DNA of 64,000 nt from Ruminococcus sp. Its GTDB lineage: Bacteria > Bacillota > Clostridia > Oscillospirales > Ruminococcaceae. A program made the translations under genes and the position numbers. The stretch lies in the NCBI GenBank assembly GCA_015066975.1, contig SVNI01000001.1, forward strand, positions 124,001-188,000, read 5' to 3'. The notes beneath the pieces are model-generated. The model saw only the letters and a program-made list of their open reading frames with translations, searched no databases and was not told the DNA's origin. Below, one piece after another: positions 11,855 through 33,583 of this stretch (position 1 is its first letter; each line of letters starts with the position of its first letter).

Positions 11855-11859
11855 TTTTT

Positions 11860-13348: not shown

Positions 13349-13352
13349 AAAA

Positions 13353-13379: not shown

Positions 13380-13397
13380 TTTTAATATCATCATAAA

Positions 13398-14798: not shown

Positions 14799-14940
14799 AA
14801 CGCATCACACACTTTCTGTAATATTTTTTTGCATAGCCGGGCTTATGCAGTTATATTTATTATAACTGTTTTTTCACAGAATGTCAATATCTTTGTGAAA
14901 TTTTTTATTTATTTCATGTGTGATTTATGAATTGATTAAA

Positions 14941-15381
14941 TTATTTGCTGTAAAAATCTCTCTGCTCGACGGCGAGGGTATCACAGCGTTCATTTTCGGG
15001 ATGGCCTGCATGGCCTTTGACCCAGATAAAATTCACATCATGAATCTCTAATAATTTCAGCATTTCTTCCCATAAATCAATATTTAAGGCCATTTTGCCG
15101 TCAGATTTTTTCCAGTTTTTCTTTTTCCATGAATAGACCCATTTTTTTGTAATGCTGTCTACAACATATTTACTGTCAGTTGTAACAGTGACTGAACAGG
15201 GCTCTTTCAGTTTTTTCAAGCCCTCGATTACGGCTGTCATTTCCATGCGGTTATTAGTTGTATCGACTGCACCGCCGGAAAATTCCTTTTCATAATCTCC
15301 ATAACGGAGAATTGTTCCCCATCCGCCAGCACCGGGATTTCCAGAACATGCGCCGTCGGTAAACATTTCGATATGTTTCAT
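14941..15381 (-). CDS. rnhA: ribonuclease HI
   Basis: IEMFTDGACSGNPGAGGWGTILRY, NNRMEMTAVIEGL, WVKGHAGHPENERCD; start at MKHIE. Confidence 0.95.
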   Translation of the reverse strand: MKHIEMFTDGACSGNPGAGGWGTILRYGDYEKEFSGGAVDTTNNRMEMTAVIEGLKKLKEPCSVTVTTDSKYVVDSITKKWVYSWKKKNWKKSDGKMALNIDLWEEMLKLLEIHDVNFIWVKGHAGHPENERCDTLAVEQRDFYSK

Positions 15382-15481
15382 AAAAACCTCTTTTCTGAAT
15401 AAATCTTGAAATATAACAACAGGGCAGAGAAAACTTCTGCCCCGTACTTGCAATTTAATTTATATTATGTTATAATAATAA

Positions 15482-16681
15482 TTACTTGGAAATCAAAGCA
15501 AGAGTATCTCTTGCAATGAGCAGTTCTTCATTTGTCGGAACAACCCAGACTTCTACTTTGGAATCACCCTGAGAAATTTTGCAGAGTTTACCTCTGATAC
15601 CTGCATTGGTAACAGTATCAATCTTGATGCCGAAAATATCCATATCAGCACAGACTTCTTCACGGACATCCGGAGCATTTTCGCCGATACCACCAGTAAA
15701 CAGAACAGCATCCAGACCGTTCATGGCTGCGGCATAAGCACCGATATATTTCTTAATCTGATATACAAGCATATCTTTGGAGAGTTTCGCTCTCTTGTTG
15801 CCCTGTTCACAGGCAGCAGAAACATCACGATTATCAGAGCCGACACCGGAAACACCTAAGAAACCGGATTTCTTGTTCATATAGTCGGACATTTCAGCAG
15901 GTGTAAAGCCGTGCTTTTCCATGACAAATGTCACAGCAGAGGGGTCAACACAGCCTGTTCGTGTACCCATCAGAACACCGTCAAGAGGTGTGAAGCCCAT
16001 GGAAGTATCAACAGATTTTCCGCCGTCAACAGCCGTGATGGATGAACCGTTTCCAAGATGACAGGAAACAATTTTCAGATTCTTGATGTCTTTGCCCATA
16101 GCCTTAGCAAGTGCAGCAGATACAAATCTGTGAGATGTACCATGGAAACCATATTTTCTGACATGAAGATTTTCATAGTCTTCATAAGGCAGACCAAACA
16201 TGAAAGCCTTTTCCGGCATGGTCTGATGGAATGCAGTATCAAATACAACAGCCTGCGGAACAGATTCCGGCATGACTTTCTTACATGCACGCAGTGCCAG
16301 TGCATGGGCATGGTTATGAACCGGAGCAAGGTCACGGAGTGCATCAATCTTGTCAATAATTTCATCTGTCACAAGAGTGGTTTCAGAGAAAACTTCTGCA
16401 CCCTGCACGATTCTGTGGCCGACAGCAGCAATTTCGCTCATATCCTTGATGACAGCGGCATCACCTGTTGTAAGAACTTCCACAAGCTTCATGAAAGCTT
16501 CGGTATGTGTGGGAAAATTGCAGTCAGCATCATATGTTCTGCCGTCAGCGGTTTTGTGGGAAACATGACCATCAATACCGATTCTGTCGCAGTTGCCCTT
16601 TGCGAGAACGCTTTCGTCGTCCATGTTGAGGAGCTGATACTTAAGAGAAGAACTGCCTGCATTGACTACTAAAATTAACAT
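15482..16681 (-). CDS. ackA: acetate kinase
   Basis: LILVVNAGSSSLKYQL, HNHAHALALRA, YGFHGTSHRFVS, FTGGIGENA. Confidence 0.97.
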   Translation of the reverse strand: MLILVVNAGSSSLKYQLLNMDDESVLAKGNCDRIGIDGHVSHKTADGRTYDADCNFPTHTEAFMKLVEVLTTGDAAVIKDMSEIAAVGHRIVQGAEVFSETTLVTDEIIDKIDALRDLAPVHNHAHALALRACKKVMPESVPQAVVFDTAFHQTMPEKAFMFGLPYEDYENLHVRKYGFHGTSHRFVSAALAKAMGKDIKNLKIVSCHLGNGSSITAVDGGKSVDTSMGFTPLDGVLMGTRTGCVDPSAVTFVMEKHGFTPAEMSDYMNKKSGFLGVSGVGSDNRDVSAACEQGNKRAKLSKDMLVYQIKKYIGAYAAAMNGLDAVLFTGGIGENAPDVREEVCADMDIFGIKIDTVTNAGIRGKLCKISQGDSKVEVWVVPTNEELLIARDTLALISK

Positions 16682-16836
16682 ACAAATTTCGTTCCTTTCG
16701 ATTTAAAAAAATTTAGATAAAACAAATGCTGAAAAGCACCCTATTACTTATTATATACTTTTTTCAGAAAAAAGCAAGTCTTTTTTCTGAAAAACTCATA
16801 TCTTTTCTGTAAATAATCCGGAGAGGAGAACACAAC

Positions 16837-18021
16837 ATGAAAACCGGAGCGATTATCTGTGAATATAATCCCCTGCATAACGGACATGCATATCATATTC
16901 AGGAGACAAAAAAAAGAGGCATCACGCATCTTGTGGCCGTTCTGAGTGATGATTTTGTCCAGCGCGGAGATACCGCTTTACTGAATAAATTCGACCGCGC
17001 AGAGCTTGCTGTGAAAGCCGGCGCGGATTTGGTGATAGAACTCCCCGTTCCGTATTCCTGCGCAACGGCTGAACTGTATGCTCTGGGTGCTGTACAGATA
17101 CTGAAAGCATTGAATATTATAGAAATATTATCTTTCGGCTGTTCGGGCGATGTGTCTCTTTTACAGTCGCTTGCGTCGGAAGAACTGGAAATCGAAAATT
17201 CTCCCAGAATACAGGAGCTTCTGAAAAAAGGCTTTTCTTATCCGTCAGCAATGTATCAGGCACTCTCTGACACGCTTTCTCCGGAAATTTCAGAACTGCT
17301 GACCGACCCGAATAACCTGCTCGCCTTTGAATATCTGAAAGCAATCAGAAATCTGAATGCCCCGTTTCGGCCGTTCGCCGTGCAGAGGAATTCCGTTTCT
17401 CATGACAGCCCCCATCCGTCCGGAACGTTTGCCAGTGCAAGCCTTATCCGGAACAGATTTTTCAGCCATCAGGATTATGAAAGCTATCTTCCGGCATTCA
17501 CAGCAGAAAAACTTGCAGAATCTGCCCGGCAGGGAAAAACAGCAGAATTCGCAAATCTGGAAAAAATTATACTTTACAGAATGCGTATCATGTCCGAAAC
17601 AGAATTATTATCCCTGCCGGATATGTCTCCTAATCTTGCAAGCCGTTTCCGAAAAGCACAGAATGCCTGTTCTCTGGAATCATTTCTGCATTCTGTGAAA
17701 TCCAAATGCTTCACTATGGCCAGAATCCGGAGAATTGTCATTTATGCTTTGCTCGGCATCCGGAAAGAAGATTTTCAGATAGAAATCCCCTTTGCCCGGA
17801 TTCTTGCTTTCAATCAGAAAGGAACAGAGCTTTTAAGGCTCTGCAAAAACCGGAGCACTATTCCGGTCAGTACGTCCCTTGCGGAACTGCGCACAGTTTC
17901 CCCACAAGCAGAACGCTTTGCAGAACTGGAAACCAATACCGCACATCTCTACGGACTGGCACAGAAACAACTTACATCTGCGGAAACGGAATTCCGCCGG
18001 AAAATACAGCTTATCAAATAA
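16837..18021 (+). CDS. tmcAL: tRNA(Met) cytidine acetate ligase (YlbM family)
   Basis: GAIICEYNPLHNGHAYHIQETK, SDDFVQRGDTALLNKFDRAELAV. Confidence 0.9.
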   Translation: MKTGAIICEYNPLHNGHAYHIQETKKRGITHLVAVLSDDFVQRGDTALLNKFDRAELAVKAGADLVIELPVPYSCATAELYALGAVQILKALNIIEILSFGCSGDVSLLQSLASEELEIENSPRIQELLKKGFSYPSAMYQALSDTLSPEISELLTDPNNLLAFEYLKAIRNLNAPFRPFAVQRNSVSHDSPHPSGTFASASLIRNRFFSHQDYESYLPAFTAEKLAESARQGKTAEFANLEKIILYRMRIMSETELLSLPDMSPNLASRFRKAQNACSLESFLHSVKSKCFTMARIRRIVIYALLGIRKEDFQIEIPFARILAFNQKGTELLRLCKNRSTIPVSTSLAELRTVSPQAERFAELETNTAHLYGLAQKQLTSAETEFRRKIQLIK

Positions 18022-18042
18022 GCAGAAACGAGGAAAATATTT

Positions 18043-18720
18043 ATGTTTGACATCCGGAATATCAAATCAGCAGTTCTCGATATGGACGGCACTCTGATAG
18101 ATTCTATGGGCATCTGGCATGAGATTGATAAACGCTTCTTTGCCGAACACGGCCTGACACCGCCGGAAGGTATCTCCAATCAGGTCAACAAGATGACCAT
18201 GCAGGAATGGGCGGACTATTTTACCCGTGAATTCAAGATTAACATGACCAGTGAACAGGTCATTCAGCGAATCGGTCAGATGTGTTATGAATATTATGCC
18301 GAAATCATCCCCATCAAGCCATATGTAACTGAATTTCTGGACTTTCTGGACAGTCACGGGATAACCTACGGTATTGCAACAGCAACTTACCGGAAATCAG
18401 CAGAAGCAGTTCTGAAACGCTTAGGCATCCTGAACAGAATGCAGTTTGTCCTGACGGCTGAAGAAGTTCCCTCCAGCAAGAAAACGCCGGAAATGTTCCT
18501 GAAAGCTTCACAGCTTCTGAATAGCAGTCCGCGTGAAACACTTGTTGTGGAAGATTCGCTTCACTGTCTGGAAACCGCCGTCAGTGCAGGATTTCCAACG
18601 ATAGCTGTACATGATGATGCTGTTCCTGCACATGAAGAAAAAAATATTCAGCTTCTTGCTGATGTATGGGGCTGTGACCTGAAAGAAATCATAGAAAAAA
18701 TCAATCCGGAACGGCTTTGA
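18043..18720 (+). CDS. HAD-superfamily hydrolase, beta-phosphoglucomutase-like
   Basis: AVLDMDGTLIDSMGIWHEID, SSKKTPEMFLKA, VVEDSLHCLETAVSAGF. Confidence 0.9.
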   Translation: MFDIRNIKSAVLDMDGTLIDSMGIWHEIDKRFFAEHGLTPPEGISNQVNKMTMQEWADYFTREFKINMTSEQVIQRIGQMCYEYYAEIIPIKPYVTEFLDFLDSHGITYGIATATYRKSAEAVLKRLGILNRMQFVLTAEEVPSSKKTPEMFLKASQLLNSSPRETLVVEDSLHCLETAVSAGFPTIAVHDDAVPAHEEKNIQLLADVWGCDLKEIIEKINPERL

Positions 18721-18744
18721 ACCGTTCCGGATTTTCAGGAGAAA

Positions 18745-19317
18745 TTATTCTTCTGTCAGAATATAGATAACATTCGGGTCAGGATTTTCCAGCTCGTCAT
18801 ATTCCTCTTGCGTCATGACAGCAATACGATTCTGCAAAGCCTCAATCTGCTGGGTATGCGTATTCAGAAGTGTTCGCACCTGTGTCCAGAATGCAGTATA
18901 GCTGTCTTCGTCTGTTGCTTCGCTGACACCTTTCGGAATATCACGGATTTCAACAGGCGGAAGCTGATACCGGATAATCTGGTCAGGCGGGTCGGTTTCG
19001 GGATTCGCACCCGTGCCGTCATAACAGTAAGCCACCAAATCCAGAAAAAGCGTTCCTGCCTCGGTGGTGAACAGACTGCTGATATTCCATGTCAGATGAA
19101 CATAGTTTCCGTCAGCAGAAAGTTCCTGTGGCAGTTCCGTCTGCGTTTCTGCGCCGGATGCAGTCACGGCTCTCATGATGAATTGAAAATTATGCAAATC
19201 ATACACATCATAGAATCTGTCTACTTCGATAGCGACTGTATCAGACTGTGCTTCTTCGAGAGAAAGCAGATGCGCCAGCGGAAGGGTATCGATAAATTTT
19301 CCGATTGCTTTTAACAT
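18745..19317 (-). CDS. phage baseplate/tail-like hypothetical protein
   Basis: 190 aa; C-terminal MTQEEYDELENPDPNVIYILTEE resembles a motif common in phage tail/baseplate proteins. Confidence 0.55.
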   Translation of the reverse strand: MLKAIGKFIDTLPLAHLLSLEEAQSDTVAIEVDRFYDVYDLHNFQFIMRAVTASGAETQTELPQELSADGNYVHLTWNISSLFTTEAGTLFLDLVAYCYDGTGANPETDPPDQIIRYQLPPVEIRDIPKGVSEATDEDSYTAFWTQVRTLLNTHTQQIEALQNRIAVMTQEEYDELENPDPNVIYILTEE

Positions 19318-19423
19318 AGCAAATCAAACTCCTTTCATAAAAAGCGCAGAAACAGAAAAAACTGTACGTTTCCGTACAGTTTTTTTAAAAATTCACAAAT
19401 TGTTTACAAATTACAGGTTTGTG

Positions 19424-20521
19424 TCAGGAATTGCCGTATTTATTATATTTCTCAATATCATCATTAGTAATCAGCGTCAGGGCACTGAAACCACAGGTAA
19501 AAAGCGCGACAATAAAGAGAAGCACCACAACAGCTCCGCCGCCTTCGGTCTGCATGAGCAGAGGAATCCCCGGAAACAGCATCATCACAAACGCCACAAT
19601 ATCAATAAACTTGCATAAGCCTTTAAGCTGAGGAATCGGGGCAGCCAGCAGAAGCGAACCAAGTCCGAACACTGCACCTACATACCCGGCAATCGATTTT
19701 ATCTTGAGTGTCAGACCGCCTTCACCTGCTTCGATAAGCTTGTTTCCGACACCAAACAGATTGGAGAAATACAGACAGAAAGCTACTGCACCTATCACAC
19801 CGACAATCGTCAGCATAATCAGCGTTTTAAAGCCCTTTCTGGCCTGTTCACGTTCGCGCTGTTCGCGTTCCTGTGCCATGCGGCGACGGTTCTCCTGTTT
19901 TTCTTCCTCGGAAAGTTCCATTTGCGGAAGCGGCTCTTTTCTGGGCTGGGCAGCTTCACGCTTTGCGCGTTCAAGGTCTTCATCCTTGAACTGGGGAACA
20001 TATTCTTCTGCCTTAGGTGCATCTTCCAGCATGGCTTCTTCTCCGGCAGAAGCTTCTTCTGTGGGGGCAGGTGCTTTCGGACGCAGTTCGTTTGGAATCA
20101 TGGGCGCGGGAATGCCAAGGGCATCTGCACGCATCTTGACAACCTGCATCTGTTTTTCAGCATCCAGATTTATAAAAGCCTGTTTCAGATTTTCATCAAA
20201 CTGGAGTCTCTGACAGAAATCTTCTACAGGGTCATAGGCAGAAGGAGAATCATCTGCGAGCAGGTCTTCAGCATTTTCGATAACAGGGGCGGAAACATGG
20301 GCGGGAGATTGTTCCTGCCATGTCTGTTCTGGTTCGTCAAGCAAATTCTGAGTATCCAGAACGGGCGCACCGCGTTTCTGGTCATTGCCTGACCAGACGG
20401 CCGGTTCATCATCAAGCAAACCGGCCAAGTCGGCATCATCAAGCTTAGGAGCACCTTTTTTTTCAGTTTCCTGATAAGTCGGTTCTTCGAGAGTACCGAG
20501 CACATCATCTAAATCAGGCAT
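19424..20521 (-). CDS. hypothetical membrane protein with acidic N-terminal linear-motif repeats
   Basis: Repeated (G/S)AP-x-(L/I)-x-LLxDE motifs, charged coil, hydrophobic C-terminal segments. Confidence 0.7.
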   Translation of the reverse strand: MPDLDDVLGTLEEPTYQETEKKGAPKLDDADLAGLLDDEPAVWSGNDQKRGAPVLDTQNLLDEPEQTWQEQSPAHVSAPVIENAEDLLADDSPSAYDPVEDFCQRLQFDENLKQAFINLDAEKQMQVVKMRADALGIPAPMIPNELRPKAPAPTEEASAGEEAMLEDAPKAEEYVPQFKDEDLERAKREAAQPRKEPLPQMELSEEEKQENRRRMAQEREQREREQARKGFKTLIMLTIVGVIGAVAFCLYFSNLFGVGNKLIEAGEGGLTLKIKSIAGYVGAVFGLGSLLLAAPIPQLKGLCKFIDIVAFVMMLFPGIPLLMQTEGGGAVVVLLFIVALFTCGFSALTLITNDDIEKYNKYGNS

Positions 20522-20531
20522 TTATGTCACC

Positions 20532-21806
20532 TCAGCGTTCAATCATCTGGTCACGGTCAGGGCCTACACCGACCATGCAGACTTTGCATTCACAGAGTTC
20601 TTCCAGTCTTTCGATATATTTCCGGCAGGTTTCCGGGAGGTCTTCAAATTTTCTGCACTGTGTGATATCATCGTCAAAACCGGGGAAAGATTCGTAAACG
20701 GGAGCACACTCTGCAAGTTCTTCCAGACTGGAGGGAAAATCATGCAGTTTTGTACCGTCGGGCTTAACGTAGCCTGTGCAGATTTTCAAATCGCCGATAC
20801 CGGAAAGCGTATCCAGCTTGTTGATAGCCAAACCGTCAAGGCCGTTGACTCTTACGGAATGACGGACGATAACAGCATCAAACCAGCCGGTTCTTCTGGG
20901 TCTGCCGGTAGTTGTGCCGAATTCACCGCCCTTGTTGCGGATGGTTTCTCCGGTTTCATCAAAAAGTTCTGTCGGGAACGGTCCTTTGCCAACTCTGGTA
21001 GTATAGGCTTTTGCAACACCAATGATATTATCAATCATTTTAGGCCCTACGCCTGTGCCGACTGTCACACCGCCGGAAAGCGGATGAGAACTTGTAACAA
21101 AAGGATAAGTACCAAAGTCGATATCCAGCAGAGTTGCCTGTGCACCTTCAAACAGAATTGTTTTTCCGGCTTTGTAGGCTTCATAAGTCAGAACAGAAAC
21201 ATCAGCCACATAGGGTCTGAGACGTTCGCCATAGGCAGTATATTCCTCAATAACGGCATCCAGGTCATGTGCCTGACCGCCGTACACAGCAGTAATGATT
21301 TTATTCTTGAGTTCCCCTGTGGAACGTGCTTTCTGGGCGAACAGTTCCGGATTGACCAAATCGCAGACACGGATACCGCATCTTTCGTACTTGTCCATAT
21401 AAGTAGGGCCAATGCCTCTCTTGGTAGTACCGATGTCGTTGCCGCCGCGGAAAGCTTCGGAAAGTCCGTCAAGTGTAATATGCCACGGCATTACTACATG
21501 CGCACGGGGGTCAATTTTGAGATTCTTAGTAGAGATTCCACGGCGTTCCATTTCGTCAAGTTCGCCGATAAAATCTTTCGGGTCAAGGACAACACCCGCA
21601 CCAATCAGGCACTGTGTTTCCGGGTAGAGAATACCAGACGGTACAAGATGCAGTTTATAGGTCTGGCCATTGCTGACAACCGTATGACCGGCATTGTTGC
21701 CGCCCTGAGAACGAACAACCACCTGAGCACGGGAGGCAAGAATATCAATGACTTTGCCTTTTCCTTCGTCGCCCCATTGTGTTCCGATTACAATATTTGC
21801 AGGCAT
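20532..21806 (-). CDS. purA: adenylosuccinate synthetase
   Basis: IVIGTQWGDEGKGKVIDILA, RGIGPTYMDKYER, GVGPKMID; real start MPANIV at 21806. Confidence 0.97.
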   Translation of the reverse strand: MPANIVIGTQWGDEGKGKVIDILASRAQVVVRSQGGNNAGHTVVSNGQTYKLHLVPSGILYPETQCLIGAGVVLDPKDFIGELDEMERRGISTKNLKIDPRAHVVMPWHITLDGLSEAFRGGNDIGTTKRGIGPTYMDKYERCGIRVCDLVNPELFAQKARSTGELKNKIITAVYGGQAHDLDAVIEEYTAYGERLRPYVADVSVLTYEAYKAGKTILFEGAQATLLDIDFGTYPFVTSSHPLSGGVTVGTGVGPKMIDNIIGVAKAYTTRVGKGPFPTELFDETGETIRNKGGEFGTTTGRPRRTGWFDAVIVRHSVRVNGLDGLAINKLDTLSGIGDLKICTGYVKPDGTKLHDFPSSLEELAECAPVYESFPGFDDDITQCRKFEDLPETCRKYIERLEELCECKVCMVGVGPDRDQMIER

Positions 21807-21948
21807 GAAAATTTCCTCTTTTCCTGATATTTTCTGTTTTTTGAAAAACAGAATGACATACATGTATATTATACCAGAAAGATTCCGGAAATGCAAGTGT
21901 TTTTTCAAAAAAAATCTGCCGGAAGCAAAATCCGGCAGATAATTGTAT

Positions 21949-22329
21949 TTAATTTGCAGAAGGATTCTGGTTGCTGTATCTCTTGACCATTTCTTTTGTG
22001 ATGGTAATTGTTTCATCTTTCGGAAAACGGTAGAGATTATCTTCTGTAACATAAATCCATGTCTCTACACCTGCGTTGTTTTTAAGCGTAATTCTGTAAT
22101 TGTTATTATTGTCTCTTGCAGTCACGGCGGTAACTTCTGTAACAGTATATTCTACTTCCGTGGTCTGGTCAAGGTCATAGCCGATTTTGGCCGCGCTCAG
22201 ACCGGCTACCAGAAGCAGAATGCCTATGATAATAGTAGAAATTTTTCCGTGATTGAGCAGCATCAGCAGGCCAAGAACCGCTGCAAGTCCACCGCCGATT
22301 AAAACCCATATACCTAAATTTAAACTCAT
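21949..22329 (-). CDS. small hypothetical membrane protein
   Basis: 126 aa with two hydrophobic segments at N-terminus. Confidence 0.6.
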   Translation of the reverse strand: MSLNLGIWVLIGGGLAAVLGLLMLLNHGKISTIIIGILLLVAGLSAAKIGYDLDQTTEVEYTVTEVTAVTARDNNNNYRITLKNNAGVETWIYVTEDNLYRFPKDETITITKEMVKRYSNQNPSAN

Positions 22330-22608
22330 AATAAAATTCCCCTTTCTGGTGATATTTTCTATATTATAACATATCCGGAAGAAAAAATCAATACGACAGT
22401 TCAGAAAAAATTCAAAAAAAATTAATTTTTCATCTGATTTTCACAGTGAGAAATTACCAGTTGCAAAACCCGAATTTCTGCATAGAATATCATCAGCAGA
22501 AGATTCTGTATTCCGGAGGAGAGTGGCTGATTCTGTACTGTGCAGAAGCAGTCTGTAAACAGCTCTCTGCACAGTCGGAACAGTATGACACTGCTTTTGG
22601 AATAACAA

Positions 22609-22633
22609 AGCCCCTGTTCGTACGGCAGGGGCT
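22609..22633. terminator. terminator of the R-M operon
   Basis: AGCCCCTG-N9-CAGGGGCT followed by T-run. Confidence 0.75.
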
Positions 22634-22641
22634 TTTGTAGA

Positions 22642-23499
22642 TTAGAGGAGTTTCAAAAGAATATCCTGTTCTAAATCCTGAATTGAATAAAGATGCTCCA
22701 TCACTGCAAAAGTTTCTTCAAGATTATGCCTTGCACTGCGCCAGCCTTTGCCGTCTGTGAACCAGACAAACCCAAAGCCGGGAATCGTATCTGCTTCCAG
22801 TGCAAGCTGTTTATAACTCCGGGCTGTTTCATTAAGCTTAGAACCGCCGGAAGAATAGAAATTCGTCTCAATGCCGTAAATCGCCGAATCTGTTTTCAGA
22901 ACAAAATCAAAACGCTTTTCTGTCTTGCCCTGATTGGAAATTGCTGATAAATCAATCCCGAATTTCTGGGTGATTTCATGGATATATATTTCTTTGAAAT
23001 AATTCTGGTTTCTGATGAATCCAGCTTTTTGCAGATAGGATTCTACCAGATTTTCCATCAGATGTCCGCCCCGGTTTTTGCGTCCGTTGGAATCAAGACC
23101 GGTTTCCACCCCTGTGACATAATCAACCAGATTACTGATAATATGATTCTTCAGCAAATCAAACAGACCCGTTTCACGCATGAAAATCTGATATTGTTCC
23201 ATACTGTAATTTGGTTTTGAAAACTGATACAGATATTCGCCTGTACTGTCAAGTACAGGAATTTCACTGGCTCTGACAGCAAGCAGTATCGGGATGCATC
23301 TGAGCGTTTCTGGATATTTCTGCACAAGTTCTGCGAATTTTTCTTCAATATTCTGACAGCCGATAAGAGAATTAAGCAGATGCAGTTCGATTCTGACAGA
23401 CTCTGCATTTGCATACACTTTTTGGAAATCAATATAATAATCATAACTGGCGATACTGTCCCGGAAGCCGGACAGCCATGTTTGAAAATCTCTTTTCAT
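22642..23499 (-). CDS. type II restriction endonuclease, DpnII/MboI family (GATC)
   Basis: 285 aa; GVETGLDSNGRKNRGGHLMENLVESYLQKAGF, FDFVLKTDSAIYGIETNFYSSGGSKLNETARSYK, FVWFTDGKGW characteristic of DpnII. Confidence 0.9.
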   Translation of the reverse strand: MKRDFQTWLSGFRDSIASYDYYIDFQKVYANAESVRIELHLLNSLIGCQNIEEKFAELVQKYPETLRCIPILLAVRASEIPVLDSTGEYLYQFSKPNYSMEQYQIFMRETGLFDLLKNHIISNLVDYVTGVETGLDSNGRKNRGGHLMENLVESYLQKAGFIRNQNYFKEIYIHEITQKFGIDLSAISNQGKTEKRFDFVLKTDSAIYGIETNFYSSGGSKLNETARSYKQLALEADTIPGFGFVWFTDGKGWRSARHNLEETFAVMEHLYSIQDLEQDILLKLL

Positions 23500-23520
23500 A
23501 GGAGACTCCTTTCTGAGGCT

Positions 23521-24405
23521 TTACCTGTTGCAGATTAATAATTCACTGACATCATATCGTTCTGCACCTTTACAGCTAATCGCACGTTTTGCGGTAATGC
23601 GCCGGATATGATAATTCTGGTAGAGGTCATCGAAAAAATTATCTTCCGTATTGCTGTTTTTGGGATCGGAATTACTGGCGGTGACTTTAGCACCCTCTGC
23701 GGTAATTCTGTCGATAAATTTTTTCAGGGCAATCTGTTCGGCATCCTGAAATTTATCAGGACAATATGCCGTGAAAGAAGCCGTATCACTGAGAGGACGA
23801 TAAGGCGGGTCAATATATACGAATGTATTTTTGTCGATAAAGTCAAGACACTGACTGTAATCACCGCACCGGATTTCGGCATGTTGAAGTGCCCTGCTGA
23901 CGTTCAGGAGATTCTGTGCATCACAGATGCAGGGTTTTTTGTATCGTCCCATCGGAACATTGTATTCTCCCTTCTGATTGACGCGATACAGGCCGTTAAA
24001 GCAGGTCTTATTGAGAAAAATAAACAGAGAAGCCTTTTCAAGTACATACTGCTTCCCTGAAGTCGACAGAAGCGTGTTAAAACGCTTTCTTTTTTCGAGA
24101 TACATTTGTTTCCGGATTTCTGGTTCTGCATTAAGAAAACAGTTCTGTAATTCATCCAGATGCAGAATTAAATCTTTGGGATGTTTCTGAATCTGCATAT
24201 AAACATTGATTAATTCCGGATTAATATCATTGATTAAAACTTCCTCAGGGCGGTGATGTTCAAGCACATCCAGCAGAACTGCTCCGCCCCCGACAAAAGG
24301 CTCACAGTATCTGATGATTTTTTCCGGGTAAGTAGCCCGGATATTCTGGAGCAGTTTTTGTTTTCCGCCAGCCCATTTGAGAAAAGGCTTGATTTGATTC
24401 TGCAT
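23521..24405 (-). CDS. dam: Dam-family DNA adenine methyltransferase (GATC), partner of DpnII-like enzyme
   Basis: IKPFLKWAGGKQKLL, CEPFVGGGAVLLDVL, FVYIDPPYRPLSDTASFTAY; start MQNQIKPF at 24405. Confidence 0.93.
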   Translation of the reverse strand: MQNQIKPFLKWAGGKQKLLQNIRATYPEKIIRYCEPFVGGGAVLLDVLEHHRPEEVLINDINPELINVYMQIQKHPKDLILHLDELQNCFLNAEPEIRKQMYLEKRKRFNTLLSTSGKQYVLEKASLFIFLNKTCFNGLYRVNQKGEYNVPMGRYKKPCICDAQNLLNVSRALQHAEIRCGDYSQCLDFIDKNTFVYIDPPYRPLSDTASFTAYCPDKFQDAEQIALKKFIDRITAEGAKVTASNSDPKNSNTEDNFFDDLYQNYHIRRITAKRAISCKGAERYDVSELLICNR

Positions 24406-24519
24406 GAGAGCGTTCCTTTCTGATTTCCATCTGATAAGTCTTAATTTTATGATAACACAAATCCGGAAAGATGTCAATCAAAAAATCCCTGTTCAAAAAC
24501 AGGGATTTTTGTGCTGATT

Positions 24520-26514
24520 TTATTCTTCGGTGAAATCCTGCATCTGGGAAACCGGTGTTTCCGTGAATCCTGCGGATTCTGTAGAATCAGAAGTTTCGGG
24601 AGCAGTTTCAAGAGATTCACCCTGCATGAGCTTCTCAAATTCAGCCCCTTCGATTTTCTCATTTTTGATGAGATACTGGGCAACTGTGTGGAGCTGGTCA
24701 ATGTGTGTGCGGAGAATTTCTTCGGCTTTTGCATAGCCTTGTTCTACAAAGTTTCTGATTTCGGCATCAATTTCAGCGGCTACTTCATTGGAATAATTGG
24801 GAGTACTGCTGAAATCACGGCCGAGGAACGGTTCACTCTGGTCATTGCCATAGACAACAGGGCCTAATTTTTCGCTGAAACCGTAGCGTGTAATCATGTT
24901 TCTGGCTGTCTGTGTTGCACGTTCAAGGTCATTGGAAGCTCCTGTGGAAATATCATCCATGATTAATTTTTCAGCAACACGTCCGCCAAGCAGAACGATA
25001 ATTTCTTCATGCATTTCTTTCAGGCTGTTGTAAGATTTGTCATGTTCCGGAAGTGAGAGGGTATAACCTCCTGCCATGCCTCTGGGAATGATGGAAATCT
25101 GGTGTACTTTATCCTGGTGCGGACAATAGTAAGTGCAGATAGCATGACCTGCTTCGTGATAAGCTGTAAGCTTAACTTCTCTTTCTGTCTTGACACGGGA
25201 TTTCTTTTCAGGCCCTGCCACAACTTTGATAGTCGCTTCTGCAATATCCTGATTGGTGATAGCTTTTCTGTTGGCTCTGGCAGCGAGCAAAGCGGCTTCG
25301 TTAGTGAGATTTTCCAAATCTGCACCCGTAAAACCAACAGTTGTCTTGGCAATATCAGTCAGATTGACATCCGGTGCAAGGGGCTTGTTTTTGGTATGCA
25401 CTTTCAGAATATCTTCTCTGCCCTTGATATCCGGATAGCCGACAACAATCTGTCTGTCGAAACGGCCGGGACGGAGAAGTGCAGGGTCAAGAATATCTCG
25501 TCTGTTCGTTGCAGCGATAACAATAACACTTTCATTTCCGGTGAAACCGTCCATTTCCACCAGAAGCTGGTTCAGGGTTTGTTCGCGTTCATCATGACCG
25601 CCGCCAAGGCCTGCACCTCTGTGTCTGCCGACAGCGTCAATTTCATCAATGAAGATAATAGAAGGCGCATTTCTCTTAGCAGTATCGAACAAATCACGCA
25701 CACGGGAAGCACCGACACCCACAAACATTTCTACGAAATCCGAACCGGAAATCGGATAAAACGGGCATCCTGCCTCGCCGGCAACTGCTCTTGCAAGCAG
25801 AGTTTTACCAGTACCGGGAGGACCTAACAGCAGAACACCTTTCGGGATTCTTGCGCCGATTTCGGAATATTTCCGCGGATTCTTGAGAAAGTCAACAATT
25901 TCGGCCATCTCGAATTTTTCTTCATCCGCTCCGGCAACATCTTGGAATGTGGCTTTCTTGCCGTCGGCCTGTGTCTTGATATTCGCTTTTCCGAAATTGG
26001 TATATTTAGTCCCCCCTGCCTGACGCATCATGAAGACGAACAGCACCACGCCCATGACAAGAATAATAAAAGTCGGGACATAGGTAATCAGCCATGAATT
26101 ATCCGTAATCCGGTAATAATCCTGATCGAGAGGGGTATCAGGATTGGCCTTGTTGTACTCGATTCTGTAATCTTCAGTATCATTGAGAAAGATAGAGACA
26201 TTCGGAACGGAATATTCCACTTCTTCGGTACTGCCTTCCAGAGTAAGTTTCAGGTCGCCTGTACCTAAATCCAGCGTATAGCCGGTGACTTCAAGATTAT
26301 CGAAATGGGAGATGATTTCCGAATATGTGTACTCCGGTTCTTTTTCATTGAGGCGCGGCAGCATATAGGCTGCAAGGAAAATGAGCAGTGCCGCAATCAA
26401 GAGATAGGCCGCAATACCTCTGCTTCTTTTTGGTGTCAAGAGCTTCACTCCTTTTTGATTTTTACTTTTTGGGAATAGAACTGATAAAAATATTAAAATT
26501 GGCACTCTCGTCAT
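24520..26514 (-). CDS. ftsH: ATP-dependent zinc metalloprotease FtsH
   Basis: [28 protein letters not shown] segments at N-terminus; real start may be internal. Confidence 0.96.
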
Positions 26515-26535
26515 GAGACTGCTAATTTTGATGCT

Positions 26536-27909
26536 TTAGTATACATCAGAAATGTGATAATCTGATGTGCATTCCGTGTTTGCTGTGTGAACATGCAGAA
26601 TTAGCATGTTCTGGGTATGTTCTGTCACACAGGCACGGCAGGAAACGCCCAGATTCTGCACCCAGACGAGTCCGGAGGCATCCGAAAGGCAGTGCAGGGA
26701 GTTTCGCAGGGAAACAGGCTGGGTCTGAAGCCATTTTTTTACGCTGACAGTGTGATTTTTTCCGTCCGGCTTCAGATAAAGGCCGTTTGTTCTGCCATGA
26801 AGCACTGCGGACTCTTTTATTATATCATAATCTAAAGCAGAATTTGCAAATATTCTGTGAATTTTTTCAAATTCGGAAAAATTTTTTTTCTGCACGAGTT
26901 CTGCTGTGACCAGATAACCCGGGAAAATCTGATTTTCGCCGATAATAAGAGGTTTCGGAAGCACGTCGGGAAGCTTCCGTTCGAGAAACAGTACATGATG
27001 GCTGACATGGACGGTGAGTTCACCGCGGATAATTTCAGCCTGACCACCGTGCTGTAATAGTTTCTGGACTGTGAGGACATTAAGATAATTAGAAGAAACT
27101 TGATGAGATTCCAGAAATATCCGGATACATCTTCTCTGTACAGCCGGATGCAGATTCTGCAAGTCTTTCAGCGTTCCGTCCGGAAGAAGATGTTCTGCAT
27201 AGGCAGTTTTCGCGGAAAATGCGAGAAAATTTTCTTCTTCTGTGAGAATGTCCGTCATCATGGAAATGCTTTTTTCCGTACTGCCAGGACAGATGCCGGA
27301 AAGCAGAGGTGTGATGTGATGCCGGATAAAGTTTCGGGTATAGATATCCTGCTGATTGGACGAGTCTGTAATATAATCAAGATGCTGTTCTGACAGAAAG
27401 TGTTCAATCTCCTGCCGGCTGGATTTTAGTAACGGCCGGATATAAATATCACGTTTCTGAGGAATGCCACAGAGACCTTTTAAGCCCGTCCCTCTGGCAA
27501 GCCGGAATATCACCGTTTCGAGATTATCAGAAGCATTGTGCGCCGTCGCAACAAGGCCTTCTGCATGTTCACAAAATGCCTGATAACGACATTCTCTTGC
27601 AGCAGTTTCAACAGAACAGCCGGAATGTTCCTGTTGATAAGTCTGCACATCCACAGAAACAATTTTCAGAGAAACATGAAATTTCTGACACAAATCAGCA
27701 CAGAATCTTTCATCCCGAATGCTTTCCGCACCTCTCAGATTATGCTGAATGTGAATTGCCGAAATCCGGAGCTGATATTTTTTCTGCCATTTCAGCAGAC
27801 AGTACAGAAGGCAGACACTGTCCGCACCGCCGGAGAGCGCACAGACAACAGCCTGATTCTGTATCTGTTCCCGTTCAAGAAACTGCCGGACAGCATCAAG
27901 CGGGCGCAT
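26536..27909 (-). CDS. tilS: tRNA(Ile)-lysidine synthase
   Basis: VVCALSGGADSVCLLYCLLKW, IQHNLRGAESIRDERFC. Confidence 0.92.
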   Translation of the reverse strand: MRPLDAVRQFLEREQIQNQAVVCALSGGADSVCLLYCLLKWQKKYQLRISAIHIQHNLRGAESIRDERFCADLCQKFHVSLKIVSVDVQTYQQEHSGCSVETAARECRYQAFCEHAEGLVATAHNASDNLETVIFRLARGTGLKGLCGIPQKRDIYIRPLLKSSRQEIEHFLSEQHLDYITDSSNQQDIYTRNFIRHHITPLLSGICPGSTEKSISMMTDILTEEENFLAFSAKTAYAEHLLPDGTLKDLQNLHPAVQRRCIRIFLESHQVSSNYLNVLTVQKLLQHGGQAEIIRGELTVHVSHHVLFLERKLPDVLPKPLIIGENQIFPGYLVTAELVQKKNFSEFEKIHRIFANSALDYDIIKESAVLHGRTNGLYLKPDGKNHTVSVKKWLQTQPVSLRNSLHCLSDASGLVWVQNLGVSCRACVTEHTQNMLILHVHTANTECTSDYHISDVY

Positions 27910-29239
27910 CAGATTTCTCCATAGACGAGAATCTTGTATACTGACCGTCCCAGATTAAATTAGCTGTACCGCATTCGCCGTGACGGTTTTTCGCAACAAT
28001 ACATTCTGCCACGTTGGGCGTTTTGCTGTCTTTGTTATAATACGCATCACGGTAGAGAAATAACACAATATCGGCATCCTGCTCGATAGACCCTGAATCA
28101 CGCAGGTCAGAAAGCATCGGACGCTTGTCGGTACGGCTTTCCGGCCCTCTGGAAAGCTGTGACAGCAGAATAACAGGAACATTCAGTTCTTTTGCCATAA
28201 TCTTGAGCTGACGGGTGATTTCAGCAACAACCTGTACTTTATTTTCCGTTCGCAGAGTACTCTGAATTAATCCAAGATAGTCAATCACGACCAGTCCCAG
28301 ATTTTTCATTCTGCGCAGTTTGGATTTAATCTGCGGTACGGTGATGCTGGCAGTATCGTCAATATAAATCGGCTGATTGCTCAGATAACTTGCCGCTACG
28401 GCAAGATTTGTCCAGTCTTCGCCGGGCGGAATGCGTCCACTCCGGAGCTTATTAGAATCAATCCTCGCGATAGAAGACAGCAGACGGGATGCAAGCTGAG
28501 TTTTCGGCATTTCCAGTGAGAAGATACAAACTGCTTCATTCGGATGATTTTTTGCGACGTTTTCAGCAATATTGAGTGCGAATGCTGTTTTACCCATAGC
28601 CGGACGGGCAGCAATCAGAATCAGGTCAGATTTATTCAGCCCGGAAATTAAGCTGTCAAGATAGGCAAACCCTGTGCCGATGCCTTTATATTTTTCTCTG
28701 TCAGGCCCTGCAAGTCTGCCGATTTGTTCATAAGTTTCCGCAACTACTTCCCGGATAGGAGTCAGACCGCTGACATCACGTCCCTGACGGATAGCGAAAA
28801 TCTGCTGTTCTGCGCTGTCCAGAAGCATCTGGGCATTGGTTTCGCCGTTCTGGATGTCCGTCAGAATATGCTGGGAGACTTCCGCAAGCGAGCGGATATA
28901 ATACTTATTGGCAACAATTTTACAATAGCTTTCCAAATTGGCGACAGTAGGAACCATTTCCACCAGATTGGCAAGATAGTTCCGGCCTTCGGAAGCGGTT
29001 TCAAAGATATGCGCTGCAACAGCTTTATCCAGAACCGTAACAGCATCTACATGATTTCCGGAAGCCGACATGCTGGCCATGATGGAAAATAAGGCTCTGT
29101 GCTGTTCGATATAGAAGCATTCGGGCTTGATGGATTCCAGTACAGTTCCCAGCGAATCGGAATCAATTAGGATTGCACCGAGAATCGTCTGTTCTGCATC
29201 CAAGCTGTAGGGCATGTTGATATGTTCAAAATCTGGCAT
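27896..29239 (-). CDS. dnaB: replicative DNA helicase
   Basis: LDAEQTILGAILID, IAARPAMGKTAFALNIAENVA, LSQLSRGPESR. Confidence 0.97.
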   Translation of the reverse strand: MPDFEHINMPYSLDAEQTILGAILIDSDSLGTVLESIKPECFYIEQHRALFSIMASMSASGNHVDAVTVLDKAVAAHIFETASEGRNYLANLVEMVPTVANLESYCKIVANKYYIRSLAEVSQHILTDIQNGETNAQMLLDSAEQQIFAIRQGRDVSGLTPIREVVAETYEQIGRLAGPDREKYKGIGTGFAYLDSLISGLNKSDLILIAARPAMGKTAFALNIAENVAKNHPNEAVCIFSLEMPKTQLASRLLSSIARIDSNKLRSGRIPPGEDWTNLAVAASYLSNQPIYIDDTASITVPQIKSKLRRMKNLGLVVIDYLGLIQSTLRTENKVQVVAEITRQLKIMAKELNVPVILLSQLSRGPESRTDKRPMLSDLRDSGSIEQDADIVLFLYRDAYYNKDSKTPNVAECIVAKNRHGECGTANLIWDGQYTRFSSMEKSDAPA

Positions 29240-29292
29240 AAAATTTCCCCTTTCCCTGAATAAAAGGCGGCTTTTGGGATGCCGCCTGTGGA

Positions 29293-29739
29293 TTATGCTT
29301 CAATAACTTCGATAGTAACAGATGCAGTAATACCGGTATAAAGACGAATTTCAGCAGAAAATGTGCCAAATGCCTTGATATCGGATTTCAGGATAATTTT
29401 TTTCTTATCGATTTTGCAGCCATGCTGTTTTTCAATTTCCTGAGCGATTTGCGCAGAAGTCACAGAACCGAACAGTCTGCTCCCTGTGCCGGCTTTTGCA
29501 GAGATGGTAACCGTTTTTCCGTCAATAATTTTTTTGATATCTTCGGCATTCTGTTTTTCAACATCTTTCTTGTGCTGAGCAGAAGCCTGCTGACCCTGTA
29601 ATTTATTGATATTTTCAGGGGTAGCTTCTACAGCAAGGCCTTTCTTGAGAAGCATGTTGCGGGCATAGCCGTCAGCGACTTCTTTAAGTTCGCCTTTTTT
29701 GGCAGAACCTTTGACATCCTGAATAAAGATAACTTTCAT
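29293..29739 (-). CDS. rplI: 50S ribosomal protein L9
   Basis: [36 protein letters not shown]. Confidence 0.97.
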
Positions 29740-29778
29740 AGGGAGAATCTTCCTTTCTGTTAAGTAGATATATTATAA

Positions 29779-31731
29779 TTATTCCTGTTTGGGAATATCT
29801 TCAGCGAGAACTTCCAGAAGAAGATTTTTGGCTTCTTCAGGAGTGATATTGGGAATCTGTGTCGCGGCCATGGTCTGATGACCGCCGCCGCCGAGCTGTT
29901 CCATAATGACCTGAACGTTGACTGCACCTAGCGAACGGGCAGAAATCGAAACGGAATCTTTTACCGCATAGATGACAAATGCGGCATCTACATGAGAGAT
30001 GCTTAATAATTCATCAGCGGCCTGAGGTGCAACAAGACGAACTTCGGGAGTATTTTCTGGTGCAATGGCGACAGCGTGACAGCCGACAATTTCAGCAGAA
30101 CTGACAATTTCAGCACGGCTCTTGTAAGCTTCGATAGAGCCGGAGAACAGGCCTTTGACCTTGACGGTATCTGCACCGATTTTCTTGAGATAAGCTGCGG
30201 CTTCAAACGTCCTGACACCTGTACGCATGACGAAATTTTTCGTATCAAGCATAATTCCAGAAAGCAGACAGTCTGCACAGCAGGCATTTACTTCTTCATT
30301 CAGTTTGAAATACTGGATAAGCTCCGTCACCATTTCACAGGCAGAAGAGGCATAAGGCTCATGATGAAACACAACAGCATTATCAACATAATTGATATTT
30401 TTCCTGTGATGGTCAATTACAACAACCTGCTTCGCAGCCTGATATAATGCAAGGCTTTCCAGAATATCTTTGTTATGCGTATCCACAATAATCAGAAGCG
30501 TGTCTTCTGTAATTGTATCAAGTGCCTGTTTCGGGGTTAAAAACAAATCTTTTCCGAGTTCTTCTTCGGCAAGGGAGATAAGCTGTTTCGAGAGATTTTT
30601 CTCTGGATCAACAACAACATTGACAGGAATCTCCATCAGTCTGACCGCACCGGCAAGTCCGCAGGCAGAGCCGATAGAATCCAAATCCCCGAATCTGTGC
30701 CCCATGATATAAACATTGGCACTGTTAAGAATTAAATCTTGAATCGCTCCAGCGATAATGCGCGTTTTGGCTCTTGATTTTTTTTCAACACCTTTGGACA
30801 CACCGCCGAAGAACCGGAAACCACTTTCTGTTTTGACAGCGGCCTGGTCTCCTCCTCTGCCGAGTGCCATATCAAGACACTGTGCAGCAAGAGCTTCGCT
30901 TTCCTGCATACTGGAAGCACCATGTCCTACACCAATAGAAAACGTCAGACAGTTTTTCTCATCCGCACGGATATTCCTTGCTTCATCAAGAATGCTGAAC
31001 TTTCCGGCGATAAGCTGCTGTACATGTTCTTCTTCCAGAACAGCAATGAATCTGTCATTCTTCAGCCGTTTCAAAATGCCGTTTGTCTGGGAGATGAACT
31101 GCTCCAGCAGTTTTTCAACCGCCGCACTGACTTCAAGCCGGGTGCTTTCTTTGGCATTCTGGATTAAGTCTTCATAATTATCAACAACAATCAGGAGAAC
31201 GCACGGACGGGAATTCTGATAAAGCTGTTTCGTTTTTTCCAGTTCTGTCATATCTGACCAGAGGTAGGCAGTAAGATTTTTTTCCTGTCCGGCATAGGAA
31301 ACAGCCTTTACCTGATAATAACAATCCTGCCAGTGGATTTCCTGAACAGCAAGAGTGGTATCCAGCGGAAGAAAATCACACAGTTTTCTGCCAAACATAT
31401 CTTCTGTATCAAGAATATGTTCGCTGAAATATTCATTGTAATGCAGAAGAATGCCGTCTTCATCCAAAACACACAGCCCCATATCCAACTGCTGGAATGT
31501 GGCGAGTTCTGCTTCTGTGCATTCCCGGTTCAGTCGTGCAATATAGCGGATACGGTTTCTGTTGGAATCCAGAAGTGTGAATCCGGCTACACCCGCCAGC
31601 AGAAAAGCCGGCACACTGTACAGAAAACCATATTTCAGACCGCTGTGAAATAATACAGCAGTCGTGATGACAGTCAGTAAAAGCAGCAGTATGGTCAGCC
31701 CCCAGAGAACTGCATGATATCTGGGCTTCAC
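29779..31731 (-). CDS. gdpP: c-di-AMP phosphodiesterase GdpP (TM + PAS + degenerate GGDEF + DHH/DHHA1)
   Basis: MGHRFGDLDSIGSACG, VVIDHHRKN, GGGGHQTMAA. Confidence 0.94.
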   Translation of the reverse strand: MKPRYHAVLWGLTILLLLLTVITTAVLFHSGLKYGFLYSVPAFLLAGVAGFTLLDSNRNRIRYIARLNRECTEAELATFQQLDMGLCVLDEDGILLHYNEYFSEHILDTEDMFGRKLCDFLPLDTTLAVQEIHWQDCYYQVKAVSYAGQEKNLTAYLWSDMTELEKTKQLYQNSRPCVLLIVVDNYEDLIQNAKESTRLEVSAAVEKLLEQFISQTNGILKRLKNDRFIAVLEEEHVQQLIAGKFSILDEARNIRADEKNCLTFSIGVGHGASSMQESEALAAQCLDMALGRGGDQAAVKTESGFRFFGGVSKGVEKKSRAKTRIIAGAIQDLILNSANVYIMGHRFGDLDSIGSACGLAGAVRLMEIPVNVVVDPEKNLSKQLISLAEEELGKDLFLTPKQALDTITEDTLLIIVDTHNKDILESLALYQAAKQVVVIDHHRKNINYVDNAVVFHHEPYASSACEMVTELIQYFKLNEEVNACCADCLLSGIMLDTKNFVMRTGVRTFEAAAYLKKIGADTVKVKGLFSGSIEAYKSRAEIVSSAEIVGCHAVAIAPENTPEVRLVAPQAADELLSISHVDAAFVIYAVKDSVSISARSLGAVNVQVIMEQLGGGGHQTMAATQIPNITPEEAKNLLLEVLAEDIPKQE

Positions 31732-31768
31732 CTTTTCACGCTCCTTTCGCGAAGATAGGCATTTCGAC

Positions 31769-33583
31769 TTAGATTTCCATAATAATGGGCAGAATCATAG
31801 GACTGCGCTTTGTCTGTTCAAAGATGAATTCAGACATGCGGTCACGGAGTTTGGTCTTCAGGGAAGACCATTCACGAAGTTCGGCATAGGTACAGCCGTC
31901 AAGAGTACGGCGCATGATTTGTCTGGCCTGTACCATCATGTCTTCTGCTTCACGGACATAGACGAAACCGCGGGAGACAATATCAGGCCCTGCAACAATT
32001 TCGTTTGTATTTCTCTGAATGCCAATAACGATAATAATCAAGCCGTCTTCGGCGAGATGCTTTCTGTCACGGAGCACGATAGAGCCGACATCACCGACAC
32101 CAAGACCGTCTACAAGCGTACGTCCGGCAGGCACTTGACCGACAATCTGCATGGAATTGCCGTCAGTTTCGATAACATTGCCGATAGAAGCAAGAATGAT
32201 ATTTTCTTTCGAGATGCCCATTTCAAGTGCAAGCCCCTGATGCTTCACAAGATGCTTGTATTCGCCGTGCATAGGAATGAAAAATTTCGGTCTGGTAAGG
32301 GCAAGCATAAGTTTCAGTTCTTCCTGACAGGCATGTCCGGAAACGTGTACATCATACATGGATTCATAGATGACTTCTGCACCGGATTTGAGCAGTTCAT
32401 TCACAACTTTGGTGACATGCTTTTCATTGCCGGGAATCGGGGTCGCGGATAAAATAATGAAATCCATCGGCGTGATGTTGATTTTATTATGGTCATGCAT
32501 GGCCATTCTGGTCAGGGCAGACATTGGCTCGCCCTGACTGCCTGTCGTAACCAGTACAAGCTGTTCCGGCGCATACTGATTGATAGTTTCAATATCAATA
32601 ATAATATTTTTGGGAACTTCCAGATAGCCCAGTTCCAGAGCAGTCGCAATGACATTGACCATGCTCCTGCCAAGTACAGCGACTTTGCGCTTTGTCTTGA
32701 CAGCCATGTTGATAATCTGCTGTACTCTGTGAATGTTAGAAGAAAATGTCGCGATAATGATTCTTCTGTTCCCGGCTTTGGTGAATAATTTCTCGAACGA
32801 TACACCGACCTTGCTTTCCGACGGCGTATAGCCGGGGCGTTCAGCATTGGTGGAATCTGCCATCAGCGCAAGAACACCTTTGTTGCCGAGTTCCCCGAAA
32901 CGGCCTAAGTCAATGCGTTCCCCGTCCACAGGAGAAAAATCAACTTTGAAATCCCCTGTATGAATCATAACTCCAGCCGGAGTATAGATAATCAGACCCA
33001 TAGAACCAGGGATAGAATGATTTACTTTGATGAATTCTACAGTCATGCATCCCATCTTGATAGTTTTCCGGGCATCCATGACATGAAGCGGTACTTTATT
33101 GAGAATGCCGTGTTCTTCAAGCTTATGCTTGATTAAGCCGATAGTCATTGCCGAACCGTAAACAGGCGCATTGACTTTCTTAAGCAGGTAGGCCAGTCCG
33201 CCGATATGGTCTTCATGGCCGTGCGTAATCACAATGCCCCGGAGTTTGTCTTTGTGATGTTCCACATAGGAAAAATCCGGAATGACAATGTCAACGCCGG
33301 GCATTTCGGCATCAGGAAAGGCAAGACCGCAGTCAAGGATGAACATGTCATTACTGCATTCAAAAACAGTCATATTCTTGCCGATTTCGTTCAGACCGCC
33401 CAGAGGAATAATGCGCACAGGCGCACGACGCTGTTCATAGGCTTTGTTGTTATTTTTTCTCTGTGGTCGGAAAGGTTTTTGTTCCGGAGTCTGCGAAGCG
33501 GTATATCTTCTTTGTCTGGGTTCCAGACTGCCTTGACCGCCACGGTTCGGGTGTAAATTCTGATTGTTCAATAGATACCTCAT
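31769..33583 (-). CDS. rnjA: ribonuclease J
   Basis: IIPLGGLNEIGKNMTVFEC, VITHGHEDHIGGLAYLL, MHGEYKHLVKH. Confidence 0.95.
   Translation of the reverse strand: MRYLLNNQNLHPNRGGQGSLEPRQRRYTASQTPEQKPFRPQRKNNNKAYEQRRAPVRIIPLGGLNEIGKNMTVFECSNDMFILDCGLAFPDAEMPGVDIVIPDFSYVEHHKDKLRGIVITHGHEDHIGGLAYLLKKVNAPVYGSAMTIGLIKHKLEEHGILNKVPLHVMDARKTIKMGCMTVEFIKVNHSIPGSMGLIIYTPAGVMIHTGDFKVDFSPVDGERIDLGRFGELGNKGVLALMADSTNAERPGYTPSESKVGVSFEKLFTKAGNRRIIIATFSSNIHRVQQIINMAVKTKRKVAVLGRSMVNVIATALELGYLEVPKNIIIDIETINQYAPEQLVLVTTGSQGEPMSALTRMAMHDHNKINITPMDFIILSATPIPGNEKHVTKVVNELLKSGAEVIYESMYDVHVSGHACQEELKLMLALTRPKFFIPMHGEYKHLVKHQGLALEMGISKENIILASIGNVIETDGNSMQIVGQVPAGRTLVDGLGVGDVGSIVLRDRKHLAEDGLIIIVIGIQRNTNEIVAGPDIVSRGFVYVREAEDMMVQARQIMRRTLDGCTYAELREWSSLKTKLRDRMSEFIFEQTKRSPMILPIIMEI

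What the first reader, a model, noticed from the sequence alone, without database searches (positions are those of the whole stretch)
22642..24405. Extreme GATC depletion across the whole window, with a DpnII/Dam GATC R-M pair in the middle
A base-by-base scan of all 64 kb by eye found only three GATC tetramers: 23664-23667 (inside the dam gene), 26124-26127 (ftsH) and 30606-30609 (gdpP). Roughly 200 or more are expected at this composition (about 0.22*0.28*0.28*0.22 per base). TATC, AATC and CATC are abundant, so the deficit is specific to a preceding G. The window encodes a DpnII-like endonuclease and a Dam-like methylase, so long-term restriction-driven avoidance is the natural explanation. 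All three surviving sites lie within about 7 kb of the R-M genes, one in the methylase gene itself. The avoidance reaches core genes such as dnaB, dnaX, purA and citrate synthase, suggesting the system or its predecessors has been resident for a long time.
Basis: partly seen in the sequence, partly recalled or inferred. Interest (0 to 1): 0.85.

Follow-up and report, generated by a model that had tools for sequence, protein, structure and literature searches.

The report
Genome nearly emptied of GATC sites
A gut bacterium that carries a GATC-cutting restriction enzyme has purged almost every GATC from its DNA by silent codon choice, and it and its relatives have done the same for many other restriction sites, so their genomes appear to record which enzymes their lineages have faced.

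Summary
It is synonymous avoidance: GAT before C 7/384 against 69% elsewhere, ATC after G 2/1213 against 51%. The window holds an intact-looking DpnII and Dam/DpnM pair, a cassette of about 1.84 kb between ftsH and a DUF3185-like gene. Restriction-driven avoidance is well supported, but this pair is not the whole cause. Of 38 species of the genus 11 are depleted (O/E at most 0.13); only 5 have a DpnII gene, one of them decayed. The place is empty in two depleted sister species, and 20 DpnII carriers elsewhere in the class are only mildly depleted (median 0.43). Depleted sisters differ at 36-40% of silent sites, so near-zero GATC must be, or very recently was, actively maintained. GATC is one of a panel: this genome is also purged of RGCGCY, GGNNCC, CTGCAG, GCATGC and TTCGAA, and relatives of GGCC, CGCG, CTAG, GCGC or CCGG. 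A known phenomenon, unusually extreme and unusually dissectable.

The parts
1..64000 (.). GATC-depleted DNA, whole window (3 sites against 285 expected)
   Evidence: same in 335 kb of the genome
22642..23499 (-). dpnII: DpnII-family restriction endonuclease, 285 aa, apparently intact
   Evidence: PF04556 E=1e-108 over 276 of 278 positions; keeps the residues nearly invariant among 32 relatives, such as D198, E211, N213
23521..24405 (-). dam/dpnM: Dam-family N6-adenine methyltransferase, about 294 aa, apparently intact (DPPY motif)
   Evidence: TIGR00571 290 bits, PF02086; 2dpm (DpnM) best solved relative
22639..24479 (.). R-M cassette: extent of the insertion relative to the empty place in sister species
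   Evidence: G026 aligns 22331-22638 and 24480-24513 side by side; G061 and G008 have the same short interval without the pair
23664..23667 (.). surviving GATC, inside dam
26124..26127 (.). surviving GATC, inside ftsH (GACC in G026 and G019)
30606..30609 (.). surviving GATC, inside gdpP (GACC in G024, G028, G061)
24520..26514 (-). ftsH, conserved upstream neighbour of the cassette
   Evidence: TIGR01241 E=2e-244; synteny in the genus
21949..22329 (-). small DUF3185-like membrane protein gene, conserved downstream neighbour of the cassette
   Evidence: weak PF11381 match below cut-off; synteny

Best explanation
Type II restriction of the DpnII kind (one enzyme cuts unmethylated GATC, the partner Dam methylates it) makes each GATC in the chromosome a liability. 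A site can be cut whenever methylation lags or the methylase is lost, or when the DNA passes between strains that differ in the system. Mutations that remove the site are therefore favoured, almost always by a synonymous change (GAT-C to GAC-C, G-ATC to G-ATT or G-ATA). Over long residence and repeated gain and loss of such cassettes in this gut genus, GATC has been driven to about 1% of expectation and is held there. Shown: the depletion, its synonymous nature, its limitation to palindromes and known Type II sites, the intact-looking gene pair, and presence, decay and absence of the cassette at one place. Inferred: cleavage and methylation activity, the cost of a site, and the history of earlier systems. 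The present cassette is the identified agent here; related or different systems probably maintain the depletion in sister species.
For: Synonymous avoidance in all three codon phases. Orthologous sites that most non-depleted relatives keep as GATC are GATC in only 4 of 260 cells in depleted species. Palindromes only: 68/588 against 0/8984. All DpnII-bearing species of the genus are depleted, 5/5 against 6/33, Fisher P=9e-4 without correction for kinship. DpnII carriers elsewhere in the class have median O/E 0.43 against 0.89 in background loci. Other depleted words of this genome are Type II sites, including complete degenerate sets GGNNCC, RGCGCY, CYCGRG. A HaeIII-family gene in G014 goes with GGCC at 0.01. 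A conjugation-gene contig of the same genome is less depleted, 4/14.
Against: Six depleted species have no visible DpnII, Sau3AI/MutH or DpnI gene. The kinship-corrected association is not significant. Class-wide DpnII carriers never reach below 0.13, so the gene alone does not predict this degree. Most other purged sites have no matching enzyme found by the families tried. Enzyme activity and methylation are untested.
Confidence: 0.78

Rival explanations
1. Population-level restriction filter. The sites are purged because alleles that carry them are cut when DNA is exchanged between strains with different restriction systems. Site-free alleles spread by recombination even in genomes that lack the enzyme, much like biased gene conversion; the pressure comes from the pan-genome and not from the resident pair.
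For: Depletion without the gene in six species, kept near zero despite 36-40% silent divergence between sisters; many sites purged at once in one genome; purged sets change between species; the pair comes and goes at one place. Rusinov et al. suggest that GATC avoidance eases exchange between strains of different methylation (PMC4687349).
Against: Recombination rate, competence and strain-level R-M content were not measured; all five carriers are depleted, as the resident model also predicts.
Confidence: 0.25
2. Trace of a lost system: the depletion dates from an earlier GATC system and has simply not yet faded; the present pair is incidental.
For: Depletion without the gene, and a decayed pair in G024; such traces are described in PMC4687349. 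G008 and G034 (O/E 0.49, 0.70), placed inside the depleted clade, may be recovering.
Against: In a simple neutral simulation O/E reaches 0.12 after 2.4% silent change, while depleted sisters differ by 36-40%; species at 0.00-0.02 cannot have been free of the pressure for long.
Confidence: 0.1
3. Mutational or codon-usage bias unrelated to restriction removes GATC.
For: CTAG, also low here, is low in most species of the genus.
Against: Codon choice depends on the neighbouring codon, not on overall usage; no non-palindromic tetramer is comparably low; replacements include transversions of several kinds; close relatives of similar composition have normal GATC (G035, G032).
Confidence: 0.02
4. Assembly or binning artefact.
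For: The genomes are fragmented (this one has 179 contigs), which fits metagenome bins.
Against: Reading frames are intact and the changes are synonymous; the window lies inside a 216 kb contig; other palindromes are lost too, and related species keep normal GATC.
Confidence: 0.01

Closest known systems
DpnII/MboI-type Type II restriction-modification (Streptococcus pneumoniae DpnM-DpnII)
   Same: Full-length DpnII-family endonuclease next to a Dam/DpnM-type methylase, the same two-gene core; expected target GATC.
   Different: Only two genes in the cassette here; from own knowledge the S. pneumoniae DpnII locus has a second methylase (DpnA) for single-stranded DNA. Activity and specificity untested.
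Restriction-site avoidance in prokaryotic genomes (Rusinov et al. 2015, PMC4687349)
   Same: Under-representation of palindromic Type II sites in genomes with the system and in relatives without it.
   Different: The degree (O/E 0.01 against their threshold of 0.78), many sites purged at once, and rapid changes between species of one genus; the lack of recovery despite large silent divergence argues for current or very recent pressure and not for an old trace.
GATC avoidance with DpnI-like systems (same paper)
   Same: Strong GATC avoidance in genomes whose own system is not the obvious cause.
   Different: No DpnI family gene was found in the genus, though the control for that search was silent.

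Membership tests
DpnII-type R-M system | DpnII-family endonuclease, full length with conserved residues | tested here: met
   PF04556 E=1e-108, 276 of 278 positions; nearly invariant residues kept
DpnII-type R-M system | adjacent Dam/DpnM-type N6-adenine methylase | tested here: met
   TIGR00571 290 bits, 2dpm best solved relative, DPPY motif
DpnII-type R-M system | cuts unmethylated GATC; methylates GATC | not testable with these tools
   needs an enzyme assay or long-read methylation data
Restriction-site avoidance | site under-represented genome-wide against a Markov expectation | tested here: met
   18/1471 in 335 kb
Restriction-site avoidance | limited to Type II recognition words, mainly palindromes | tested here: met
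   68/588 palindromic tests below 0.1, 0/8984 non-palindromic below 0.3; degenerate hexamer sets
Restriction-site avoidance | associated with the cognate system across genomes | tested here: inconclusive
   5/5 carriers against 6/33 others, P=9e-4 uncorrected; 2 concordant pairs and no discordant one after correction for kinship
DpnI-type (methyl-directed) or Sau3AI/MutH system | PF06044 or PF02976 gene in the genus | tested here: not met
   none in 38 genomes; the DpnI control was silent, so that absence is weak

The most novel reading that the evidence does not exclude
Restriction acts as a recombination-linked drive. In a genus that exchanges much DNA and shares a changing pool of Type II enzymes, site-bearing alleles are destroyed in transit, so whole panels of sites go to near extinction in every strain, whether or not it carries the enzymes. 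The missing words of a genome would then list the enzymes of its population.
Probability: 0.25. Interest if true: 0.85.

Novelty: new variant of a known kind. Interest (0 to 1): 0.62.

Why it matters
Restriction-site avoidance is well known but usually mild, so its cause and speed are hard to study. Here one genus offers near-complete purges of different sites in different species, intact, decayed and empty states of the same R-M cassette at one place, and intermediate species (O/E 0.49 and 0.70). That makes it a natural series for measuring how strongly restriction selects on a chromosome, how fast sites return after loss, and whether the pressure comes from the resident enzyme or from the population. 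In practice, the missing words predict which unrecognised Type II specificities to look for in uncultured gut bacteria.

Tried and rejected
Other GATC enzymes as the source in depleted species without DpnII: MutH/Sau3AI and DpnI not found. Dam-like methylases as a guide to hidden GATC systems: G026 and G010 carry one beside an EcoRV-family endonuclease (GATATC), and those of G030 and G034 sit beside a second methylase-like ORF; none is evidently GATC-specific. EcoRV and GATATC as a second enzyme-site pair: too few sites and low values in many species. NgoBV, HaeII and NgoPII as cross-tests gave no match over their cut-off, HaeIII one. Clustering of the three survivors near the R-M genes as a signal: rejected. 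Mutation-only and artefact explanations: rejected on codon and spectrum data. Named close relatives: the genome-contig scan showed only one record of the genus, an Oscillospiraceae MAG from goat abomasum that matches G006 in contig length and FtsH identity.

Full report
Observation. The count is exact. GATC occurs three times in the window (23664, 26124, 30606) against 284.6 expected from trinucleotide frequencies and 243 from base composition; no other tetramer is as low. In 335 kb taken from 22 pieces of the same genome there are 18 against 1471. The pair is real: a full-length DpnII endonuclease (22642-23499, PF04556 E=1e-108) and a Dam-family methylase (23521-24405, TIGR00571 290 bits, nearest solved structure DpnM, 2dpm), both on the minus strand. 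Aligned with their relatives, both keep the nearly invariant residues of their families.

How the sites were removed. In open reading frames of this genome, aspartate before a codon starting with C is written GAT in 7 of 384 cases, against 3059 of 4443 elsewhere. Isoleucine after a codon ending in G is ATC in 2 of 1213, against 2447 of 4817. Serine after xGA is TCN in 0 of 117, against 3697 of 5283. Non-depleted relatives show no such contrast. At 33 positions where most non-depleted relatives have GATC, depleted species keep it in 4 of 260 cells. The replacements are of many kinds, transversions included. The proteins are kept and the silent choices avoid the word. The survivors in ftsH and gdpP read GACC in near relatives, one transition away, which suggests recent re-entry.

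Comparison across the genus. Thirty-eight genomes of the genus were searched. Eleven species are depleted, O/E 0.00 to 0.13; G008 (0.49), G002 (0.52) and G034 (0.70) are intermediate; the rest lie at 0.77 to 1.36. On a tree of ten proteins depletion lies in several separate places, with at least five changes of state: a clade of G003, G031 and G030; the window's own clade; and G025 alone. A DpnII gene was found in only five species: G000, G019, G031, G003 (a piece running off a contig end) and G024 (fragments). All five are depleted, against 6 of 33 others (Fisher P=9e-4 ignoring kinship). With kinship corrected, only two informative pairs remain, both concordant.

History of the cassette. In G000 and G019 the pair sits between ftsH and a small DUF3185-like gene, with purA beyond. 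In G024 the same place holds a frame-broken dam and a short piece of dpnII. In G026, sister of G019, and G061, sister of G024, the place is empty. In G026 the flanks 22331-22638 and 24480-24513 align side by side, which bounds the cassette at about 22639-24479. The simplest reading is one insertion in the ancestor of these five species, with two losses and one decay in progress; repeated insertion at the same spot is not excluded. In G031 and G003 the dpnII gene lies elsewhere in the genome. Relatives of the endonuclease also occur on plasmids of other bacteria and in one phage record.

Why the pair alone is not enough. G061 (0/135), G028 (0/107), G025 (0/83), G026 (3/163), G030 (2/35) and G014 (10/78) have no DpnII, MutH/Sau3AI or DpnI gene that these searches could see. 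For most of them this is unlikely to be a faded trace. Sister species in this clade differ at 36-40% of four-fold sites, and in a simple neutral simulation GATC climbs to O/E 0.12 after only 2.4% silent change and to 0.60 after 40%. So these species lost their system very recently, hold an unrecognised one, or feel pressure from other strains. Missing genes in incomplete genomes (57-100% complete) are a real possibility. Conversely, a DpnII gene does not by itself give such depletion: 20 carriers elsewhere in the class have a median O/E of 0.43 and a minimum of 0.13. In 68 background loci, mostly of other bacteria, the median is 0.89 and three are below 0.1.

GATC is one of a panel. In the genus, palindromic tetramers fall below O/E 0.1 in 68 of 588 species-word tests (GATC, GGCC, CGCG, CTAG, GCGC, CCGG in differing combinations), whereas none of 8984 non-palindromic tests falls below 0.3. 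In the window's own genome, hexamer sites are equally purged: RGCGCY 1/139, CTGCAG 4/299, GCATGC 2/112, TTCGAA 4/168, GGNNCC 24/626 with all 16 members low, CYCGRG 10/126, CAGCTG 18/244. The only non-palindromic hexamers below O/E 0.15 belong to GGNNCC, RGCGCY or CYCGRG; the next one, GAAGAG, is also a known Type IIS site (own knowledge). This negative imprint of many Type II specificities is strong support for restriction as the cause. Direct enzyme matches are few: a HaeIII-family gene in G014, whose GGCC is at 0.01; NgoBV and HaeII gave no match and NgoPII only one weak fragment below its cut-off, in searches whose controls were silent.

Mechanism. Best supported: GATC-specific Type II restriction makes chromosomal sites costly, and synonymous loss is selected until almost none remain; the present DpnII-Dam pair is the identified agent here. 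The cost per site, enzyme activity and methylation are inferred. The main rival is that the pressure acts through DNA exchange in a population with many enzymes, which would explain purges without the cognate gene and the many purged sites; Rusinov et al. suggest a version of this for GATC (PMC4687349). The two are not exclusive.

Known or new. Avoidance of Type II sites, and avoidance in relatives without the enzyme, are published (PMC4687349). What stands out is the degree (0.01 against a published threshold of 0.78), the many sites purged at once, the changes between species of one genus, and the intact, decayed and empty states at one place. No paper describing such a case turned up in the searches made here, which cover only an open-access library.

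Limits. The genome sample is 335 kb of 2.61 Mb; relatives are represented by 4-40 kb; the tree is a quick one with partial rows; the simulation is simple; all expectations are Markov estimates.

Noticed in passing
window 22331-22638 (most conserved about 22460-22638): A non-coding stretch beside the R-M cassette is conserved in the genus, with a CTGTACTGTGCAG hairpin, other conserved helices and a terminator-like end; 6 of 47 predicted pairs show changes on both sides. No Rfam family reaches its gathering score. It may be a small RNA.
   Followed up: partly
whole genome sample of G000, window included: Near-absence of other Type II sites: RGCGCY 1/139, GGNNCC 24/626, CTGCAG 4/299, GCATGC 2/112, TTCGAA 4/168, CYCGRG 10/126. 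The enzymes are not identified.
   Followed up: partly
relatives across the genus (L066-L105, L186-L245): GGCC, CGCG, CTAG, GCGC and CCGG are each near-absent in different species of the genus, with many changes of state on the tree.
   Followed up: partly
L041 and L042 (G010, G026): A Dam-like methylase beside an EcoRV-family endonuclease (PF09233 E=1e-55 in G010; a shorter reading in G026).
   Followed up: partly
L221 (G000:C170): A contig with one long ORF that looks like a VirB4/TraE-type conjugation ATPase (by eye) has 4 GATC in 3 kb against 14 expected, far more than the genome rate (P about 1e-5), as expected of a recent arrival.
   Followed up: partly
L109, L119, L112: Three MAG loci outside the genus with GATC O/E below 0.1 (0/30, 1/31, 4/44), so strong GATC depletion is not unique to this genus.
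   Followed up: no
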